Assembly (NCBI GenBank): GCA_020832285.1
Contig: JAFIFB010000091.1
Coordinates: 1 to 64,000 of the forward strand
DNA length: 64,000 bases
Direction of reading: 5' to 3'
From: Balneolaceae bacterium
GTDB lineage: Bacteria > Bacteroidota > Rhodothermia > Balneolales > Balneolaceae
This document shows positions 5,292 through 47,226 of this stretch, piece by piece. The notes under the pieces are model-generated. The model made no database searches, was not told the origin of the DNA, and was given only the letters and a program-made list of their open reading frames with translations. Position 1 is the first letter of the stretch; each line of letters begins with the position of its first letter. Both the position numbers and the translations under genes were made by a program.

Positions 5292-6539
5292 ATGAACATT
5301 CATCAAGAAAAATTTATCAGAAAAAAAACGAAATTATCATTAATGATTATGGCTGTTGTCTTAATCATGCTCGGGTCATTAGCCTTCAGTGAAGAACGAA
5401 ACCAAGACCCACCCGGGGTATCTGAATGGAATCTTATTGCCGATCAGATCGTAATTAAGGGTGGATATGGTCCTGCACCTGCATACTGGGCAATGGCCAT
5501 CGTTCAGACCTCGGTGTACGAGGCGGTCAATTCGATTTCAGGAAACGATTCTGAGCCGGATGCATCGGTCGAAGCGGCAATCGCGGCGGCTAATCATACT
5601 GCCCTCTCAGCACTTGTACCTGCAATGGAGGAGATGATTGAAAGTCTCTACCAGAAAGTATTGGCAAAGATCGGATCTGGCCCGGATAAGAATGCCGGTA
5701 TTAAAGCGGGGCAAAAAGCCGCGGAGGAGATTCTCGCTGAGAGAGCTGATTTGGGTGAAGCCGCTGAAGAGGCCTATCGACCATACACCTCTCCTGGAAA
5801 TTATGTTCCAACAACTATTCCGGCAGGCCCACAATGGTTCAAGCGTGATCTCTGGCTGATGGATGATCCAGACCAATTCAGGCCTGATGGACCGCCTGAA
5901 CTCTCCAGTGAAGAGTGGGCAAGTAATCTTAACGAAGTGAAAGCGTATGGCGGCAAGAATAGTGATCAGCGAAACTCAGAACAGACAGAGATTGCCCGCT
6001 TCTGGGAAAAAACTCACCCTTTCATCTATCACGGCCTGGTTCGTTCTTTTACCGGTCAGTCCGGACGTAATGTGTTGCAAGATGCCCGTCTCTTTGCGGC
6101 AGCAACACAGGCCATGGACGATGCGCTAACCGCCATCATGGATGCCAAGTATGAATATCATTTCTGGCGGCCTATAACGGCAATTCGCAATGCGGATCAA
6201 GATGGTAATGAAGCAACGGATCGCGATCCGGAATGGACTTCGTTGATTGAAGCACCGATGCACCCCGAATATCCTTGCGCACACTGTGTACTTGCAGGCG
6301 CTCTCGGGACGGTGCTCGAAGCGGAGATAGGAACCGATGATGTCACCCTTAAAACATCCAGTAAAACTGCCGATGGTGAAGATAGAAGTTATGAAACGGT
6401 TCAGGAGTTTATGGAGGAGGTTGAGCAAGCTCGTATTTATGGTGGCGTGCACTATCGCATCTCAAATGAAACCGGAACTGAAATGGGCATTGAGGTAGGA
6501 GAGCTGGCTGTATTGAAAATTCTAAAGGAATCAGAGTGA
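5292..6539 (+). CDS. Vanadium-dependent haloperoxidase-like protein (PAP2 superfamily)
   Basis: A 415-residue exported protein with an N-terminal signal segment (LSLMIMAVVLIMLGSLAFS). The C-terminal half has the three anion-binding motifs of the haloperoxidase/acid phosphatase fold: KYEYHFWRP (K-x6-R-P), HPEYPCAHC (in place of P-S-G-H) and ARIYGGVHYRIS (R-x5-H, with Ser where the Asp of R-x5-H-x3-D is expected). These residues bind vanadate or phosphate. The S-to-C and G-to-A changes in the second motif mark a divergent subgroup with unproven halide oxidation. It stands alone, 76 bases after the methyltransferase. A short piece of a second copy lies at 7887-7979. Confidence 0.82.
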   Translation: MNIHQEKFIRKKTKLSLMIMAVVLIMLGSLAFSEERNQDPPGVSEWNLIADQIVIKGGYGPAPAYWAMAIVQTSVYEAVNSISGNDSEPDASVEAAIAAANHTALSALVPAMEEMIESLYQKVLAKIGSGPDKNAGIKAGQKAAEEILAERADLGEAAEEAYRPYTSPGNYVPTTIPAGPQWFKRDLWLMDDPDQFRPDGPPELSSEEWASNLNEVKAYGGKNSDQRNSEQTEIARFWEKTHPFIYHGLVRSFTGQSGRNVLQDARLFAAATQAMDDALTAIMDAKYEYHFWRPITAIRNADQDGNEATDRDPEWTSLIEAPMHPEYPCAHCVLAGALGTVLEAEIGTDDVTLKTSSKTADGEDRSYETVQEFMEEVEQARIYGGVHYRISNETGTEMGIEVGELAVLKILKESE

Positions 6540-8385: not shown

Positions 8386-9552
8386 ATGAGTAACTCCAAA
8401 AACGACAACGAGTCCCGGCGAGGTCATCGTCGCGAACGTGAGCGAACACGGGTTCCGGCCCGCAGAGGAGGTGAGGACCAAAACAGGCCGGGAAGAACCA
8501 TTATTCGTGACCACCGGAACCGGGAACCCTCCCCGAGGGTCGCTGACATCGACTGGCAGCCAACTGTACTTACCCCGGTTTTTTACGGAGTTGCCGAATT
8601 TGCGAATGAACCTCATTTACCTGGCGAACTTCACGTTTTCTATCCAAGTCTTGACGGAGCGGTTGCCGGAGCGAAACTTCTCACTGCACCTGAACGATAT
8701 CCATTAATCATATTCCTTCATGGAAATTGCAATGAGCCTGCCCACTATAAACGCTGGTACCGACTACCTGCTGCGCTCGCCCGGTCCGGCTACATTGTAG
8801 CCGTCCCCGATCTGCCGAACATTCGGGAAGGCAATCCTCCCTGGGACGAAGATAACAATGATCATCAACTTGTAATCTTAACCCTTAGCTGGCTTCGTAA
8901 TCGTTCTGAGTTCAGTGATTCGCTGACTTCGCGGGAAATCGGAATTATAGGGCACTCCTTTGGCGCACTTCTGGGTGGCGATATGGTGCGCCGGATCCGG
9001 GGAAGCCGAGTGACTCACCGATACCCGTACATGTCGCTCAGTGGGGTCTGGCGCCAATGGCGGGAGTTTCCGTTCGATGAACTGCTCACACCCTCATTAT
9101 TCGCATGGGGCACTGCAGCTGACCCGGGATCCGAAATCTATGCCCAGTTGATCACACCGGAGGGGAATGATGTTCTTTGGAATCAGATCCCGGCACCAAA
9201 ACACTATCTAGAGTTCAATGGCACACATCACTGGGACTGGCTTCCGGCAGGAACCGAAAGTTCCTGTGGCTTGACGGATGAGAGAGGGCCTTGTGATCTG
9301 GCCATGCCTCTGGCAGCAGACTTCGCCTGCACCTTCTTCAATCGCTATTTACCGCCCCCCGGGACTGACGTTGCGGAAAAGATAGGAGACAACCTGGTTG
9401 CCCCTCCGCTTGATCTCAACAAGGAGCAGGAATTTTTCGCGGGTGGTCATCTCGTGGGAATGACAAGCGTCAATGATCGTGCCGGGTGCGCGGTATCACA
9501 TAACTGGGAACTGTCCCGGGGCGGTTCGGACAAAATCAGGCTTGGTCCGTAA
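8386..9552 (+). CDS. Alpha/beta hydrolase with basic RDHR-containing N-terminal tail
   Basis: The 388-residue protein has a 50-residue arginine-rich, low-complexity N-terminus (RRGHRRERERTRVPARRGG) ending in RTIIRDHRNREPSPRV, then an alpha/beta hydrolase fold of the chlorophyllase/PET-hydrolase-like class: oxyanion strand PLIIFLHGNCNEPAHY (residues about 106-121), nucleophile elbow GHSFG with Ser191, a late acid near WGTAADPGS, and His in NGTHHWDWLP. It probably cleaves an ester. There is no signal peptide, so it is likely cytoplasmic unless the tail directs export. The RDHRN peptide is shared with the papain-like protein at 12332, which carries five RDHR copies. The substrate is unknown. Confidence 0.8.
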   Translation: MSNSKNDNESRRGHRRERERTRVPARRGGEDQNRPGRTIIRDHRNREPSPRVADIDWQPTVLTPVFYGVAEFANEPHLPGELHVFYPSLDGAVAGAKLLTAPERYPLIIFLHGNCNEPAHYKRWYRLPAALARSGYIVAVPDLPNIREGNPPWDEDNNDHQLVILTLSWLRNRSEFSDSLTSREIGIIGHSFGALLGGDMVRRIRGSRVTHRYPYMSLSGVWRQWREFPFDELLTPSLFAWGTAADPGSEIYAQLITPEGNDVLWNQIPAPKHYLEFNGTHHWDWLPAGTESSCGLTDERGPCDLAMPLAADFACTFFNRYLPPPGTDVAEKIGDNLVAPPLDLNKEQEFFAGGHLVGMTSVNDRAGCAVSHNWELSRGGSDKIRLGP

Positions 9553-9683
9553 ACCATATGCAGGATCAGCAGATTATGGGCCCCTTCAGTGTTCAATGTA
9601 ACCGTATTAAGAACCCTTTTTGGTCTGATAAAGGTAGATTATACGCCAAAATCACAGAAAACAAACAACCTTTTGTTAATTGC

Positions 9684-10508
9684 ATGAAAGAACTGAAAGA
9701 ACGCAACGCACTTTTAACCGGAGCATCGAGAGGCCTGGGTGTTCACATAGCCCGCGCACTTGCAAAGGAAGGTGTGAATCTGGCGCTCACCGCCCGATCC
9801 GTTGATGCACTTGAACAGTTACGGGAAGAGGTCATTTCACACAACATAAAAGCAGTTGCCATTCCGGCTGACCTGTCTGATACAGAGCAGGTTACGACCC
9901 TTGAAGATAAGGTTGAGGACAAACTTGGCCCGATAGATATCCTTATCAATAATGCGGGGATTGAATGGGCCACACCATTCAGGAATTATTCACCTCAGGA
10001 ACTTCAAAAAATGATACAGGTGAATTTTACAGCACCGATGCTTCTCACTCGTTTCGTTCTCCCGGGAATGCTTGATCGCGGCCGTGGACATATCGTAAAT
10101 ATGTCGTCTCTCGCCGGGAAAGCCGGTTTCCCATACCAAACTCCTTACGCCTCAACTAAGGCGGGTTTGGTCATGTTCACAAACTCGCTTCGAATGGAGC
10201 TTGATGACACGCCGGTTGGGGTGTCGGTGATCTGCCCCGGATTTGTTGCTGAGGACGGGATGTATGCCGAGATGGAGAAAAGAGCCGGCCCCGCACCCCG
10301 GCTTCTGAAACCAACAACTCCAGATAAAGTAGCCTCTGCCGTAATTAAAGCGATCAAAAAGGATAAGGCCGAGATCCTCGTGAGCGCACTTCCAGTACGG
10401 CCGGCATTTATTATTCAGGAAATCTTTCCCGGAATTAAAAACACTCTCAATAAAGTATTAGGAGCTACCGCTTATGCAGAGAAAATCTCTGATCGGCAAT
10501 CGGAGTGA
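9684..10508 (+). CDS. Short-chain dehydrogenase/reductase
   Basis: A classical SDR of about 274 residues from ATG 9684. The frame is open back to ATG 9558, but the added 42 residues do not resemble the family and the glycine motif should lie close to the N-terminus. NAD(P) binding motif TGASRGLG, structural NNAG, and the catalytic Ser-Tyr-Lys set in SSLAGKAGFPYQTPYASTKAG are all present. A basic residue in SRG suggests NADPH preference. It oxidises or reduces a carbonyl/alcohol of unknown identity. The gene follows the hydrolase on the same strand by about 130 bases, so cotranscription is possible. Confidence 0.88.
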   Translation: MKELKERNALLTGASRGLGVHIARALAKEGVNLALTARSVDALEQLREEVISHNIKAVAIPADLSDTEQVTTLEDKVEDKLGPIDILINNAGIEWATPFRNYSPQELQKMIQVNFTAPMLLTRFVLPGMLDRGRGHIVNMSSLAGKAGFPYQTPYASTKAGLVMFTNSLRMELDDTPVGVSVICPGFVAEDGMYAEMEKRAGPAPRLLKPTTPDKVASAVIKAIKKDKAEILVSALPVRPAFIIQEIFPGIKNTLNKVLGATAYAEKISDRQSE

Positions 10509-10683
10509 GATCGTTCATAAACACTACTCTGAACTTGAAACAGAGAGTTCATTTTTCATTCTCAGCAGGTGGCCTAATGATCTGAAATTCGCAATATTTC
10601 ACAGACATTGATGCGATAAGTACACTTTTTCGGCTTTTTACTATATAACCGCATAATACAGAATCAGCCCAAAGAAAAAACCT

Positions 10684-11247
10684 ATGGCAGACTCAAAAAA
10701 ACTCAAAATATCCCACGAACGGGTTAAAAAACTGTTAACGATCAAGCCGGAAAAAGGGCAGTACACTACCACAACCAAAGTGCGGGTGCGCGACGGAACT
10801 ACCTGTGATGTGAAACACAAACACTGGACATTTACCGCTGATGTTGGTGAGATGGATGGCGGTAACGATGCCGGTCCGGGTCCAAGTGTTTTACAGCGTG
10901 GTGCGCTTGGAAGTTGTCTGGCCATCGGGTACGTGAAATGGGCTGCGGTTTTGGATGTACCTATTGATAGCATTGAAGTAGATGTGGAAGCCGATGTCGA
11001 CGCCCGCGGTACCTATGGCCTGGATGAAGTTGAGCCGGGATATAAGGGACTGAGTTATAAAGTTTACATTAACAGCCCGGCTTCAGAAGAGGAGGTCATG
11101 AAGGTGATTGAAGAAGCCGACAAACACAGCCCATTGCTTGCGGATTTTTTGAATCCGGTAAAGGTGGATAGGGAGGTAAAAATAGTTAATAGGCAGAAGG
11201 CAAAAGTGAAAAATCCCTCATATGCTAAAGCTTCGGAGGGCAAGTAA
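10684..11247 (+). CDS. OsmC family protein
   Basis: The 187-residue protein has the OsmC/Ohr fold: an N-terminal strand region, then GPSVLQRGALGSCLAIGYVKWA with the helix-borne redox Cys, VDVEADVDARGTYG, and the C-terminal strand-helix VMKVIEEADKHSPLLADF. Members reduce organic hydroperoxides, but the second active Cys of Ohr/OsmC (usually in a CP motif on the long helix) is replaced here, as the helix reads ADKHSPLLADF, so this belongs to the single-cysteine OsmC-like group. The final residues KNPSYAKASEGK are encoded by an interspersed DNA repeat that overlaps the gene end. Confidence 0.83.
   Translation: MADSKKLKISHERVKKLLTIKPEKGQYTTTTKVRVRDGTTCDVKHKHWTFTADVGEMDGGNDAGPGPSVLQRGALGSCLAIGYVKWAAVLDVPIDSIEVDVEADVDARGTYGLDEVEPGYKGLSYKVYINSPASEEEVMKVIEEADKHSPLLADFLNPVKVDREVKIVNRQKAKVKNPSYAKASEGK
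11214..11245 (+). repeat. Interspersed repeat fused to the osmC-like gene end
   Basis: The bases encoding NPSYAKASEGK contain CCCTC...GAGGG arms around GCTAAAGCTTC. I recognise the peptide SYAKASEGK (and its antisense LPSEALA) as the translation of a short repeat found at gene ends in unrelated bacteria. It replaces the natural C-terminus. Only one copy was noticed in this window. Confidence 0.5.
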
Positions 11248-11249
11248 GC

Positions 11250-11305
11250 TGTAGACCTGTCAGCGTTCGGAAGATCCTGACAGTGTCTGGTTTTAACGGG
11301 CAAAT
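11250..11305 (+). repeat. CTGACAG-type interspersed repeat, copy near 11.25 kb
   Basis: The stretch from GACCTGTCAGCGTT through GATCCTGACAGTG to GGTTTTAAC resembles the block at 54,246-54,387, which has ACCTGACAGC, AACGCTGTCAGATCC and TGCTGACAGGTTTTAACC. The copies are degenerate. No coding capacity is evident. Confidence 0.45.
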
Positions 11306-11432
11306 TTTAAATCAACGGCATTCTTGAAACCGGACTTTGGCAGGATTCACTCCCAAAAAGCATGGGAGCGAAACTCGGCCAGGTCCTGTATAATCTCACG
11401 ACTCTATACTCATGACTAAAATCTAAGACAAA

Positions 11433-12251
11433 ATGGAACCAAGATTACAACGACGTGTACAGCGCTACGGCTGGGATAAAGCCGCTAAATATTATGATGA
11501 TTCCTGGAAACAACAATTAAAACCTGCTCAGGATAAACTTCTGGAAATGGCCGCTCTTAAACCTGGAGAAAAAGTATTGGAAACTTCCTGCGGGACCGGA
11601 CTTATTACTATCCGTGCGGCAAAACAGATCCAACCCGATGGACAGCTGATTGCTACAGATATTTCTGACAAGATGGTTGAAATATCAGAAGAACTGGCAA
11701 AACAATACCAGCTATCTAATATAACCCTCAAACGTATGGATGCTGAGAACCTTGACCTTGAGGACGACCAGTTTGATGCCGCAATCTGTGGACTTGGATT
11801 GATGTATTTTCCAAATCCCGTGCAGGGACTGAAAGAGATGTACCGGGTTCTAAAACCCGGAGGAAGAGCAGCGGTTGTAATTTGGGGAGAACGAAAAAAT
11901 TGCGGCTGGGCTGATATTTTTTCGATTGTGGATAAACGGGTAGCTTCTGAAGTATGCCCAATGTTCTTTCAGCAAGGAACCGGTGATACTCTCGAATCAT
12001 CAATGAAAACCTCTGGATTTGAGCAGATCCAAACACACCGATTTAGTAGAAAAATAACCTTTTCATCACCTGAAATGGCTGTTACAGCTGCATTTGCCGG
12101 TGGCCCTGTAGCTCTTGCCTATCGGAAGTTTGATGAGGAAACAAAAGAATCAGCACATAAAGAGTATCTGGATTCCATTTCAGAATTCAGACAAAACGGC
12201 GAATATGATATACCGGGGGAGTTTGTAGTCACCCTGGGTTTAAAACACTGA
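11433..12251 (+). CDS. Class I SAM-dependent methyltransferase
   Basis: A 272-residue cytoplasmic methyltransferase: N-terminal helix RYGWDKAAKYYDDSW, motif I KVLETSCGTGLITIRAA, post-I acidic residue in LIATDISDKMVEISEE, motif II DDQFDAAICGLGLMYF and motif III YRVLKPGGRAAVVIW. The Asp to Ser change in motif I (LETSCGTG rather than LDxGCGTG) is mild. The domain layout is the same as the protein at 4412, but the two are too divergent for a recent duplication. No operon partner is obvious, with gaps of 185 bases before and 80 after. The substrate is unknown. Confidence 0.83.
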   Translation: MEPRLQRRVQRYGWDKAAKYYDDSWKQQLKPAQDKLLEMAALKPGEKVLETSCGTGLITIRAAKQIQPDGQLIATDISDKMVEISEELAKQYQLSNITLKRMDAENLDLEDDQFDAAICGLGLMYFPNPVQGLKEMYRVLKPGGRAAVVIWGERKNCGWADIFSIVDKRVASEVCPMFFQQGTGDTLESSMKTSGFEQIQTHRFSRKITFSSPEMAVTAAFAGGPVALAYRKFDEETKESAHKEYLDSISEFRQNGEYDIPGEFVVTLGLKH

Positions 12252-12331
12252 TTATCATTCCCTTTTATGAAAGATGAGCAGGAAATCCGTCATTAATATT
12301 TAATTATTTTTAATATAGTCAAGGAGATAAT

Positions 12332-13297
12332 ATGAAAAGAACAAACTTTGAACCCGCAAAACACGCATTCAGATTTGAAAATACGTTTGAAAACCAGGTG
12401 AAAGTATTCGGGCTTAGCAGTATTCCGTGGATAGGCAGCGCTTTTGAAATGGAAACAAATGGACTCTGCGGAGGAATGGCGTTTTCTGCCCTCGATTACT
12501 ACCACTCGAACCGTCCAACACCTGATGTTACTTCACCCAACTCAATGCTGAGAGAATATCTGCTGAAACGTCAGTTAGATAGTTTCAAATACAGAGATAG
12601 CTGGAGGTTTTACAGATGGACCCGAAGAAGTAACAGCACTATTGTTCCCAAAACACTGGAGAATGAAATTCCAAAAGCCAAGAAGTCCATAGACAGTGGA
12701 AACCCGGTAGTACTTGGCCTGGTAGGAGCAACCAGAGTCAGAGATATTGGCGATGACAATCACCAGGTAGTCTGTTACGGATATAGTGAAGACTCGTCTG
12801 GAAAAACAACACTCTACGTATATGACCCCAACTGTCCGCCAAGCGGAAATTTTTCTGGTGAGCTGGAACTCATTCCATTTACTCACGAAAGTTCCGGCGG
12901 TGGTGGTGGATCAGACAATCCTGGAGATCCATCCGGGCCTGTCCAGAACCTTTCAGTTACCTCAGACTCACCGGAATATAACCGGTTCAGGATTAAACGT
13001 TCCGATGCAGGAAAAAACGACTCCATCTGGAGGGGCTTTTTTGTACAACGCTACAGTAAGAGATCGAATCCACCTGTCATCAGGAGTTCAGATCGTGATG
13101 ACCAGCGCAGAACGGTCCGGGATCACCGAAATGAGAAAAGAAGAGATCATCGCGACCGGGACAGCGGACCGCGGGTCCGGGATCATCGTAAAGAAGGTTC
13201 CGAAAATAGTGGAACTGTCAGGCGGGACCACAGAAATCAAAATACCGGCAGCGTGAATCCAAATCCAAATACCAGAGATCACCGTCAGAAAAATTAA
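12332..13297 (+). CDS. Papain-like cysteine-protease-fold protein with RDHR repeat tail
   Basis: The 321-residue protein starts at an ATG preceded by AAGGAGATAAT. Residues 40-170 look like a papain/C39-type fold: NGLCGGMAF with candidate nucleophile Cys46, DDNHQVVCYGY with His144, and VYDPNCP with Asp165 as third residue. A glycine-rich linker (188-194) leads to a small domain ending SIWRGFFVQRYSKR. The last 70 residues are arginine/histidine-rich with RDHR at 263-266, 271-274, 283-286, 298-301 and 315-318. No signal peptide is seen. The same RDHRN motif occurs in the alpha/beta hydrolase at 8386. The protease activity is inferred; the tail function is unknown. Confidence 0.65.
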   Translation: MKRTNFEPAKHAFRFENTFENQVKVFGLSSIPWIGSAFEMETNGLCGGMAFSALDYYHSNRPTPDVTSPNSMLREYLLKRQLDSFKYRDSWRFYRWTRRSNSTIVPKTLENEIPKAKKSIDSGNPVVLGLVGATRVRDIGDDNHQVVCYGYSEDSSGKTTLYVYDPNCPPSGNFSGELELIPFTHESSGGGGGSDNPGDPSGPVQNLSVTSDSPEYNRFRIKRSDAGKNDSIWRGFFVQRYSKRSNPPVIRSSDRDDQRRTVRDHRNEKRRDHRDRDSGPRVRDHRKEGSENSGTVRRDHRNQNTGSVNPNPNTRDHRQKN

Positions 13298-44187: not shown

Positions 44188-47100
44188 ATGCCTTTCAAAA
44201 AAGATATCACAGAATTTATCCTGTCTGAAATGGATAATTCGGATTCATCCGGCGTGTATGTAACCCGGATTCTTTCAAAAGGACAAAAACAGGGATTTCA
44301 CCGAAAAGAAATCTGGACTGAGGTGGTGAGTCTGTTCAGCGATAAAGGTGCTCAAAAAAGCTGGGGCAACTGGGCATCGCTTAGTGACCGCGAGGAGATC
44401 CGTCTACGCTTGAAAGTGCTGAACGAAACCAGCACACTCGATGAAAGCCTGACCGATTTTATCCTCTTCTTTTTCCGGGCATCCGATCCGGTGCTCTACC
44501 AGCTCTCCTCTATCGTTCTGGGCCGCGAGATGGAAAACAATTCCCGGCTTAATACATATTTTGAACAGTATTGTAAAAAAAGGAATATACCTGCCGACAC
44601 ATCCGTCCGGCTCAACAATCAGCGGAGCCGCCGGAGAGCCCTGCTTGTTCGAGCTTCATGGCTGATAAATCGTTCAAACGGGAGTGATCCTTTCCCCCTG
44701 GATATAGAAGAAGTAAGCGGTCTGTCCGATTCCGACATCAGCATCACATTTCTTTCATGCAGCCTGTTACTGGAAGGCGGGCAGCCACGTTGCAGAGAGT
44801 ACGCCGTGAAGTTGCTCAAACACCGTTTTAGCGATCAGAAACCCATCCGCGACCGGAATTTAGTAAGAAATGCCGGGATTCTGATCGTAAGACTTAAAGC
44901 ACACGGGGAATTAGCCGGTGAACTGTTTCACCACTGCTTTGACTGCGCACTAAACCAGTATAACCAGGCAGACCAGCTTGCCACCAAACTTCAGTCTCTT
45001 TTTCTGCTCGATGAATTGATGGAAACATCCATTCACCTGGGGCTGGAGTTTACCGGTTTAGATGGGGGTCAAACCAGGCAGGGACGATTCAACCGGTTTT
45101 TGCAATCCCGGCTGAGCCACTGGGCGAGGGTAAATCAAAAAAAGTATGAGCCGCAAGACGATACGCAACCGGCTTACTCGATCTCTATTGTTGACCAGCT
45201 CTATCGTTCCAACATCCACGAAGAACCTGAAGAAGAATACCGCATCTTTGCCGAAAGCGTGCACAGCTTTTCTGATGCGTCGAGATGGAGAACCTTTACA
45301 GTGGAAGAGCGAACATATCGTGCCTTCTATTTGATCGACTTCTGCATCCACTCCGAATGGACGGAGCCGGAGGAGCTGCTGCTGCTTTTCATAAGCAACG
45401 GCCTCTTTAATAAACTGAAACCGATAGAATTACCAGAAAGTGATCAGCTCAAGACGGCACTCTCTACTATCATTAAACGTCTGATGGAACTGGAACCATC
45501 CCTTTCGCGCACACTGTTCGATCCACAATTGATTCATCGCCTGGCCGATCATGAACTGCTTCCCGCGCTGATTCCGACCGGATTTGATCCCGATTTTCTT
45601 CCCATCCTTGCAGATGCCGTTGAGCACCAGGTTCGCTTTCTGCTTGCCACAGATGCTGATTTTAAGCCCGATCATTACATCTACCTGCTTACCATCCGCC
45701 GTCCCGGTGCCTCCTTTTACCGCTACATGCTTGAACTTTGCAGCGATCGCGAATATAAATGCACAAACGGTGAGCTATACCCGCTTCAGCAGGTATTGAA
45801 ATATCTGAACCGGGATAACACTGATAAAACGCAAAACCCAACACCGTTCTGGACTGCACTGGAGCAGCTCAGGAAAAAGCTGAAGTTGCTCAGGGATGAA
45901 ACCGATCCGGTACAGCTGCTGCAAGGAATTGAGGGCGAACTGCGGGGTACAGGTGCCGAACAGCTTCGCGTAGGAATCACTCTGCACGACCTGCTCGAAA
46001 TGGTTCAGCCGTCAGACCGGGCTTGGTACCGGGCCGGTTTGCCACCATTTACCACTCAAAAAGGGAATGAGATTGTGGCACGGGATCAAATACTTGCCGA
46101 TGCACTGAAAACAAAAACTGCACTTCTTGATCCCAAAAACCTCAATTCCGGTTTTGAGATAGGCGAAACTGCACAGGCAATCAATAAGCAGTTGGATCAA
46201 ATTCGTCAGCACATTTTACCGCTTTTGGGCCTGGCTGAGGCCGGCATGTTTGGCGGACTGCTTGACGAAAGCACGGATAAAGTACAGGAATGGGAGCAGG
46301 TCTTCAGCCAGGCATTAATAATATGGAATGAGCGGGAGCTGAAAGGATCAGATGATGTACATAATCAACTGGTAGATCTGTTACTGGAAACAGATAATTC
46401 CTCCATTCGAGAAAAACTTTTTTTTGTGATCCGCGATACACTTACTGAGGAGGCGAGTGATAAAAAGGATAGCTGGCTTCACCAATATGAGCTAACAAAA
46501 TGGGCAGCCGGAGCTGCAAACAAAGTTAAAGCAGACAAGATCATTTCACCGCTTTGGGGTCAGGCACTCCAAACATTCTGGAAACAGCTTGCCGATGAAG
46601 CAATGGATCAAAATGCAGAAGCCCGCGTGGTTCAGCTTATGAAAGCTCCGGAACTTGCATCGATTCGAAAAAGGGAAGATGCCCGGCAGGTGCTTGATGA
46701 AATTAAGGTGTGGTGTCTGAACCGTTACGATGCCTATCACGCCCTTCAATGCAACCGGGAGATGAATCCGTCGTGGAATCCAGGCGCGGGAATTTTCAAA
46801 ACAGCGAGGGAATACACATCACACTTTGCCCGCGTTTGGCTGGCCTTGCTGATTGGTGTGATTTTTATGTTCGATTTTGGTGATCCCTGGACTGAACTGG
46901 CCGAAATAGGCGATGTTGGAGGTGTAATTTTTGCGTTTGTATTCGGGGTGGCGGGAACATTTTTATATGTGTGGATCGATCTTCGGAAACGTACCGTTTA
47001 CCTGAAGAACGATCCTTTCGGATGGATCTCAACCTTCGGACGGTTATTTCTTTTTTTGGGAGTTACCTTCATCTACACCGGTTTAATGGTGTGCCTTTTC

Positions 47101-47226
47101 TGGTATATGTTCTCCAGCACCGACCAGGTAGTTCACGGGGAATATGCTCCGCTACACCTCCTGTCCTGGACCGGCTTTGCTCTGTTCGTGGGTGTGTTTC
47201 TCGGATTGATTGGCAGGAATGATTAA
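44188..47226 (+). CDS. Large protein of unknown function with C-terminal membrane domain
   Basis: 1012 residues, not recognised. The first ~850 residues look like a helical repeat scaffold: alternating amphipathic helices such as ITEFILSEMDNSDSSGVYV, CALNQYNQADQLATKLQSL, HQLVDLLLETDNSSIREKL, with no enzymatic motif seen. The last ~130 residues hold four membrane helices (FARVWLALLIGVIFMFDFG, VGGVIFAFVFGVAGTFLYVW, FGRLFLFLGVTFIYTGLMVC, LSWTGFALFVGVFLGLIG). No signal peptide is present, so the scaffold is predicted to face the cytoplasm, tethered at its C-terminus. Base use is like that of its neighbours. It is monocistronic, flanked by repeat-rich gaps. A role in membrane-anchored protein assembly is possible but unsupported. 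Confidence 0.7.
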   Translation: MPFKKDITEFILSEMDNSDSSGVYVTRILSKGQKQGFHRKEIWTEVVSLFSDKGAQKSWGNWASLSDREEIRLRLKVLNETSTLDESLTDFILFFFRASDPVLYQLSSIVLGREMENNSRLNTYFEQYCKKRNIPADTSVRLNNQRSRRRALLVRASWLINRSNGSDPFPLDIEEVSGLSDSDISITFLSCSLLLEGGQPRCREYAVKLLKHRFSDQKPIRDRNLVRNAGILIVRLKAHGELAGELFHHCFDCALNQYNQADQLATKLQSLFLLDELMETSIHLGLEFTGLDGGQTRQGRFNRFLQSRLSHWARVNQKKYEPQDDTQPAYSISIVDQLYRSNIHEEPEEEYRIFAESVHSFSDASRWRTFTVEERTYRAFYLIDFCIHSEWTEPEELLLLFISNGLFNKLKPIELPESDQLKTALSTIIKRLMELEPSLSRTLFDPQLIHRLADHELLPALIPTGFDPDFLPILADAVEHQVRFLLATDADFKPDHYIYLLTIRRPGASFYRYMLELCSDREYKCTNGELYPLQQVLKYLNRDNTDKTQNPTPFWTALEQLRKKLKLLRDETDPVQLLQGIEGELRGTGAEQLRVGITLHDLLEMVQPSDRAWYRAGLPPFTTQKGNEIVARDQILADALKTKTALLDPKNLNSGFEIGETAQAINKQLDQIRQHILPLLGLAEAGMFGGLLDESTDKVQEWEQVFSQALIIWNERELKGSDDVHNQLVDLLLETDNSSIREKLFFVIRDTLTEEASDKKDSWLHQYELTKWAAGAANKVKADKIISPLWGQALQTFWKQLADEAMDQNAEARVVQLMKAPELASIRKREDARQVLDEIKVWCLNRYDAYHALQCNREMNPSWNPGAGIFKTAREYTSHFARVWLALLIGVIFMFDFGDPWTELAEIGDVGGVIFAFVFGVAGTFLYVWIDLRKRTVYLKNDPFGWISTFGRLFLFLGVTFIYTGLMVCLFWYMFSSTDQVVHGEYAPLHLLSWTGFALFVGVFLGLIGRND

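What the first reader, a model, noticed from the sequence alone, without database searches (positions are those of the whole stretch)
8386..13297. Shared RDHR peptide motif in two unrelated proteins, five copies in one tail
The papain-like protein (12,332) ends in five RDHR copies at residues 263, 271, 283, 298 and 315, spaced 8, 12, 15 and 17 residues. The alpha/beta hydrolase (8386) has RTIIRDHRNREPSPRV in an arginine-rich N-terminal tail. The flanking residues also agree (RTVRDHRN / RTIIRDHRN; GPRV / SPRV). A short basic motif reused in two folds 3 kb apart looks like a targeting, recognition or nucleic-acid-binding tag. One inference is that the papain-like enzyme processes tagged partners or that both dock on the same surface.
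Basis: partly seen in the sequence, partly recalled or inferred. Interest (0 to 1): 0.75.

Follow-up and report, generated by a model that had tools for sequence, protein, structure and literature searches.

The report
Shared basic repeat in disordered tails
Two unrelated enzymes encoded 3 kb apart in a Balneolaceae bacterium carry the same short positively charged motif in floppy tails, and a third unrelated protein at the same chromosomal spot in a sister species carries it too, which hints at a local docking tag whose function is untested and which may partly be chance similarity between arginine-rich tails.

Summary
The papain-like protein (12332-13297) has RDHR at residues 263, 271, 283, 298 and 315; the alpha/beta hydrolase (8386-9552) has one at residue 41. 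Five copies are far beyond composition (none of 200,000 tail shuffles gave three). The tail is predicted disordered; its 87%-identical orthologue keeps 19 of 20 RDHR residues. The hydrolase copy alone is weaker (about 1% by shuffling), though only four other RDHR proteins were found in a near-complete census of the 5.3 Mb genome. Among 245 genomes of the class, the only convincing genes with closely spaced RDHR repeats were this papain (two genomes) and an unrelated ~690-aa protein of a congener at the same OsmC-linked locus, whose linker repeats DRDSNPRVRDHR (papain: DRDSGPRVRDHR). Against a deep function: distant papain homologues lack the tail, and the ~690-aa protein's orthologue in the window's own genome has an RS/RD-rich linker without RDHR. 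Best reading: a clade-restricted, multivalent basic motif in disordered tails of effector-like enzymes, probably docking on a shared anionic or protein partner. 'Targeting tag' is plausible but unproven; plain convergence is nearly as likely; papain processing of tagged partners has no support.

The parts
12332..13297 (+). papain-like (staphopain/C39-like) cysteine peptidase gene, 321 aa; Cys46 (GLCGGM), His144 (NHQVV), Asp165 (YDPN) invariant in four homologues
   Evidence: Pfam PF13529 Peptidase_C39_2 just above threshold; alignment A3; weak AF2 model with Foldseek top hits staphopains
13100..13294 (+). disordered basic C-terminal tail (residues 257-321) carrying five RDHR
   Evidence: pLDDT about 30 and all coil over residues 246-321; shuffles
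13118..13129 (+). RDHR copy 1 (residue 263)
13142..13153 (+). RDHR copy 2 (residue 271)
13178..13189 (+). RDHR copy 3 (residue 283), within DRDSGPRVRDHR shared with the ~690-aa protein of G013
13223..13234 (+). RDHR copy 4 (residue 298)
13274..13285 (+). RDHR copy 5 (residue 315); RDHQ in the G008 orthologue
8386..9552 (+). alpha/beta hydrolase gene, 388 aa, esterase/PAF-AH/PHA-depolymerase-like; found in only one other genome (G017, 91% identical) of about 240 in the class, apart from one marginal partial hit
   Evidence: Pfam, PHROG and NCBIfam hits; distribution
8386..8547 (+). arginine-rich N-terminal tail of the hydrolase (residues 1-54)
8506..8517 (+). single RDHR of the hydrolase (residue 41)
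10684..11247 (+). OsmC-like protein, conserved anchor of the variable locus in most genomes of the genus
11433..12251 (+). methyltransferase, second conserved anchor next to OsmC

Best explanation
RDHR is the core of a short basic linear motif (fullest form about DRDSxPRVRDHR) that has multiplied inside disordered tails or linkers of otherwise unrelated proteins encoded at one variable chromosomal locus (OsmC-methyltransferase neighbourhood) of one Balneolaceae genus. Shown: the repeats, predicted disorder of the papain tail, purifying selection in close orthologues, and presence in three protein families at this locus across sister species. Inferred: the copies act multivalently, as an adhesive tail that docks effector-like enzymes without obvious signal peptides (papain-like protease, esterase; in the sister species a linker protein beside a GH19 endolysin-like enzyme) onto the same anionic polymer or protein partner. 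The most specific form of this idea, loading onto a delivery device, is possible but has no direct evidence here.
For: Five copies against 0 of 200,000 shuffles with three. Orthologue G008 keeps 19 of 20 RDHR residues; pN/pS 0.12 in RDHR codons against 0.22 in the rest of the tail and 0.13 in the core. Hydrolase tail residues 15-51 conserved in G017 (pN/pS 0.08, core 0.18). Multi-RDHR search of 245 genomes: the only convincing genes are this papain (G000, G008) and an unrelated ~690-aa protein in G013 at the same OsmC locus. The G013 unit DRDSNPRVRDHR matches the papain tail at 11 of 12 residues, 0 of 20,000 shuffles as good, with most shared residues in different codons (sequences), so it is not recent DNA exchange. 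Only four other RDHR proteins found in the own genome. Tail predicted disordered.
Against: Papain homologues at 42-53% identity lack the tail (G011 has one RDHR in a loop; the Gemmatimonadetes homologue has none). The ~690-aa orthologue in the window's own genome has an RS/RD-rich linker without RDHR, and in G067 the linker is not arginine-rich. With RDHR masked, the papain tail and the G013 linker still resemble each other (4 of 3,000 shuffles) but the hydrolase and papain tails do not. Each selection test rests on one pair of species and few changes. No binding partner is identified.
Confidence: 0.42

Rival explanations
1. Ordinary convergence between arginine-rich disordered tails: the papain tail has an internally expanded repeat, and the hydrolase and G013 matches are coincidences favoured by R/D/H/S/N-rich composition. 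No shared function.
For: Hydrolase match only 1% (presence) and 3.4% (ungapped alignment) against composition-matched shuffles; RDHR not conserved in distant orthologues of papain or of the ~690-aa protein; the three G013 copies are one recent tandem repeat with near-identical 51-bp units.
Against: The 11 of 12 match between the G013 unit and the papain tail exceeds 20,000 shuffles; all multi-RDHR genes judged genuine in 245 genomes lie at one locus; rough 0.006 chance of adjacency in the own genome.
Confidence: 0.35
2. The tails are loading or delivery tags for a contractile injection device or T6SS-like system, like the RIX domain or eCIS leader peptides; papain, esterase, GH19/CHAP lysins and lectin-fused relatives are its cargo.
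For: The proteins show no signal peptide by eye and have effector-like activities: cysteine protease, esterase, GH19-SH3 endolysin-like, CHAP plus PG-binding; relatives of the papain domain are fused to lectin-type repeats; arginine-rich delivery domains on polymorphic effectors are known (RIX, PMC10435454).
Against: The motif sits at the C-terminus, the N-terminus or mid-protein, unlike known N-terminal leaders; no injection machinery was seen in the loci read and none was searched for; no immunity genes identified.
Confidence: 0.1
3. Segment shuffling: a disordered module moved between neighbouring genes at this locus and then drifted, without a selected common function.
For: Shared unit in papain and G013 proteins at the same syntenic locus; other short look-alikes such as RTRVxA[KR]RG in hydrolase, G011 papain and the ~690-aa protein.
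Against: Most shared residues use different codons, so transfer would have to be old, yet the amino acids were kept; the look-alikes are weak individually (1-3% of shuffles).
Confidence: 0.08
4. The papain-like enzyme recognises or processes RDHR-tagged partners.
For: Catalytic Cys, His and Asp are conserved; the hydrolase gene 3 kb away carries the motif.
Against: The tag is mainly on the peptidase itself; G008 has the papain without a detectable hydrolase homologue; papain homologues without tagged neighbours are common.
Confidence: 0.03

Closest known systems
[quoted passage not shown]
   Same: arginine-rich short region shared by otherwise unrelated effector-type proteins of one bacterial group
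   Different: RIX is a fixed N-terminal domain (residues 1-55 of Tme1) found in 692 strains; here a tetrapeptide repeated at either end or in the middle, restricted to a few sister species, with no secretion evidence
eCIS N-terminal signal peptides (e.g. PVC payloads, PMC11495950)
   Same: signal-like terminal segments on diverse enzymes
   Different: not N-terminal in papain; eCIS machinery not tested
CsoS2 repeats of alpha-carboxysomes (PMC10484944)
   Same: repeated short motifs in a disordered chain, used for multivalent docking (basic nature of the Rubisco-binding repeats recalled, not checked here)
   Different: CsoS2 is a scaffold binding Rubisco and shell; here the motif is on enzymes and no scaffold is known
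RS/RD-type low-complexity basic segments
   Same: alternating Arg with Asp/Ser/His; the ~690-aa protein of the own genome has an RS/RD linker
   Different: RDHR is a discrete, near-exact tetrapeptide rather than a continuous dipeptide repeat
Peptidase_C39_2 / staphopain-like papain-fold peptidases
   Same: Cys-His-Asp arrangement and predicted order of helices and strands
   Different: no lectin repeats here, unlike the Haloferax and Paraburkholderia relatives; has the RDHR tail

Membership tests
Papain-fold cysteine peptidase (C39-like) | Cys at start of helix, His before a strand, Asp/Asn after the next strand | tested here: met
   C46, H144, D165/N167 invariant in four homologues; predicted helix 47-59 and strands 144-153, 159-164
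Papain-fold cysteine peptidase (C39-like) | match to a curated family above its cut-off | tested here: met
   PF13529 24.3 bits against a cut-off of 24, only just
Papain-fold cysteine peptidase (C39-like) | confident structural match to solved papain-fold enzymes | tested here: inconclusive
   top hits are staphopains but E 0.008 and TM-score at most about 0.4, from a low-confidence model
Alpha/beta hydrolase | nucleophile elbow GxSxG and family match | tested here: met
   GHSFG in sequence; PF00561 and PF12697 above cut-off
RIX-type / injection-system delivery tag | conserved N-terminal position on unrelated effectors | tested here: not met
   C-terminal in papain, N-terminal in hydrolase, internal in the G013 protein
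RIX-type / injection-system delivery tag | T6SS or eCIS genes in the same genome | not tested
RIX-type / injection-system delivery tag | secretion depends on the tag | not testable with these tools
   needs an experiment
Conserved linear motif of the papain family | retained in orthologues | tested here: inconclusive
   kept in G008 (87% identical) but the repeat tail is absent at 42-53% identity
Linear motif shared by neighbouring genes | more than composition would give | tested here: met
   papain tail 0 of 200,000; papain-G013 unit 0 of 20,000; hydrolase only marginal

The most novel reading that the evidence does not exclude
RDHR repeats are a new, clade-specific sorting or docking code written into disordered tails of unrelated cargo enzymes encoded at one variable locus, read by a common receptor (surface polymer, scaffold or delivery device) not yet identified.
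Probability: 0.15. Interest if true: 0.75.

Novelty: new variant of a known kind. Interest (0 to 1): 0.38.

Why it matters
If real, it would be a short, repeat-based address label shared by a protease, an esterase and a linker protein, evolving within one genus, and would give a handle on how bacteria of this group place or deliver enzymes that lack obvious signal peptides. If not, it is a useful example of how far arginine-rich tails come to resemble each other.

Tried and rejected
DNA-level duplication as the cause of the papain repeats: rejected, codons differ between copies. A genome-wide RDHR tag: rejected for the own genome, only four other RDHR proteins found and none with repeats. Phage or plasmid origin: no relatives of papain, hydrolase or the 548/690 pair in viral contigs; no hydrolase or ~690-aa relatives on plasmids, two distant papain ones. 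Known defence system: no PADLOC hit. Literature for RDHR: nothing relevant among 12 papers. Other multi-RDHR hits were judged by eye to be short, GC-rich antisense or out-of-frame readings. Tail-only protein search returned nothing significant beyond the two papains. Apparent hits in G007 and on one G013 contig come from AGY (Ser) codons admitted by the pattern, not RDHR. A viral-contig scan with a short PRVRDHR pattern was too degenerate for the tool and not pursued.

Full report
The window comes from a 5.3 Mb genome whose nearest named relatives are Balneolaceae MAGs. The two genes lie in a run of five same-strand genes: alpha/beta hydrolase (8386-9552), SDR (9558-10508), OsmC-like (10684-11247), methyltransferase (11433-12251), papain-like (12332-13297), followed by convergent gyrA.

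Observation. All coordinates and spacings in the finding are right. The papain tail has R 16, D 8, N 8, H 5 in 65 residues; even so none of 200,000 shuffles gives three RDHR, so five copies are not a composition effect. Each copy is written with its own codons. In the hydrolase a single RDHR in its arginine-rich 60-aa N-tail arises in about 1% of shuffles; the best ungapped match between the tails, RDHRDRDSGPRVRD / RDHRNREPSPRVAD, is reached by 3.4% of shuffles, and a gapped alignment by 14 of 5,000. With RDHR masked, nothing is left. So the papain repeat is certain and the hydrolase link is suggestive.

Genome context. The degenerate RDHR DNA pattern occurs 124 times in the genome (reversed control 72). 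Reading the sites in context (the 100 listed, plus the remaining CG-started ones; some AG-started sites on the last contigs unseen) gives only six proteins with RDHR in the coding frame: papain, hydrolase and four others, each of those with one copy. The chance that one of the four lies within 4 kb of the papain gene is roughly 0.006; this is a post hoc figure.

Relatives. The papain orthologue in G008 is 87% identical and keeps copies 1-4; copy 5 reads RDHQ. RDHR codons have pN/pS 0.12, other tail codons 0.22, the core 0.13: the tail is under purifying selection, the motif more than its surroundings, but the counts are small. The G011 orthologue (about 43%) has no C-tail repeat, one RDHR in a loop, and a basic N-tail; the Gemmatimonadetes one (about 50%) has a glycine-rich tail without RDHR. 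The more distant class homologues that I read lack it as well. The hydrolase occurs only in G017 besides this genome, 91% identical, with its RDHR stretch intact.

A third carrier. A search of 245 genomes of the class for two RDHR 4-14 residues apart gave hits in 27 genomes; read in frame, the only ones I judge to be real genes are the papain in G000 and G008 and an unrelated ~690-aa protein in G013. That protein has three tandem units of DRDSNPRVRDHR / DRDSNPRRRDHR in a basic linker. G013 carries it between a haloperoxidase-like gene homologous to window 5292-6539 and the OsmC/methyltransferase pair, that is, at the same locus, next to a 548-aa partner and a GH19-SH3 endolysin-like gene. A single unit matches the papain tail at 11 of 12 residues, better than any of 20,000 shuffles, while most shared residues use different codons (sequences).

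The counter-evidence came from the same family: the own genome holds the 548/690 pair elsewhere (contig C12), with an RS/RD-rich linker but no RDHR, and G067 has it with a linker that is not arginine-rich. Linkers diverge faster than the domains (53% against 76% and 63% identity). RDHR is therefore a clade-level novelty in these families, not an old feature of either.

What the proteins are. The papain-like protein has the Cys-His-Asp arrangement; AlphaFold2 with four sequences gives a weak core and a disordered tail (pLDDT about 30), with staphopains the top, non-significant structural neighbours. Relatives of its domain are fused to H-type lectin or other lectin-like repeats (Haloferax, G074, Paraburkholderia). 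By eye none of the tagged proteins has a signal peptide. The company kept at this locus (protease, esterase, GH19 lysin; CHAP lysin beside the pair in G067) looks like released or injected enzymes, which makes a delivery tag thinkable, in the manner of RIX (PMC10435454); but position is not conserved and machinery was not searched.

Verdict. The pattern is real and better than chance for papain and the G013 protein, marginal for the hydrolase. The most likely account is a young, multivalent basic motif in disordered tails that docks locus-encoded enzymes to a common partner (0.42); plain convergence of arginine-rich tails is nearly as likely (0.35).

Noticed in passing
L131 11035-14989 (G013:C205); L184 11376-15268 (G000:C12); L185 7540-11307 (G067): An unannotated two-gene pair (about 548 and 690 aa, distantly homologous to each other, no significant Pfam match in any copy, no PHROG or NCBIfam match for the G013 copy) in three of 245 genomes, next to GH19-SH3 or CHAP/PG-binding lysin genes in two of them.
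   Followed up: partly
hydrolase residues 18-31 (window 8437-8478); L027 papain N-terminus; L184 ~690-aa linker: Second look-alike motif RTRVPARRGG / RTRVKAKRGK / RHEVKARRGR in three unrelated proteins of the genus; 1-3% of shuffles reach each pairwise score.
   Followed up: partly
L026 (SLDT01000033.1, Gemmatimonadetes MAG): Papain homologue directly upstream of a 936-aa protein with no significant Pfam, PHROG or NCBIfam match.
   Followed up: no
L087, L133, L088: The same papain-like domain is C-terminal to long H-type lectin repeat arrays in Haloferax and a Balneolaceae genome, and lies in an 1132-aa protein with other lectin-like repeats in Paraburkholderia.
   Followed up: partly
window 10684-12251 and loci L164-L177: The OsmC-methyltransferase pair is a conserved anchor beside a variable region in most genomes of the genus, suggesting an insertion hotspot.
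   Followed up: partly
window 5292-6539: Vanadium-chloroperoxidase-like protein (weak PF22778 match) with a homologue at the same locus in G013.
   Followed up: no
window 44188-47226: 1012-aa ORF with no Pfam match at E 0.001.
   Followed up: no
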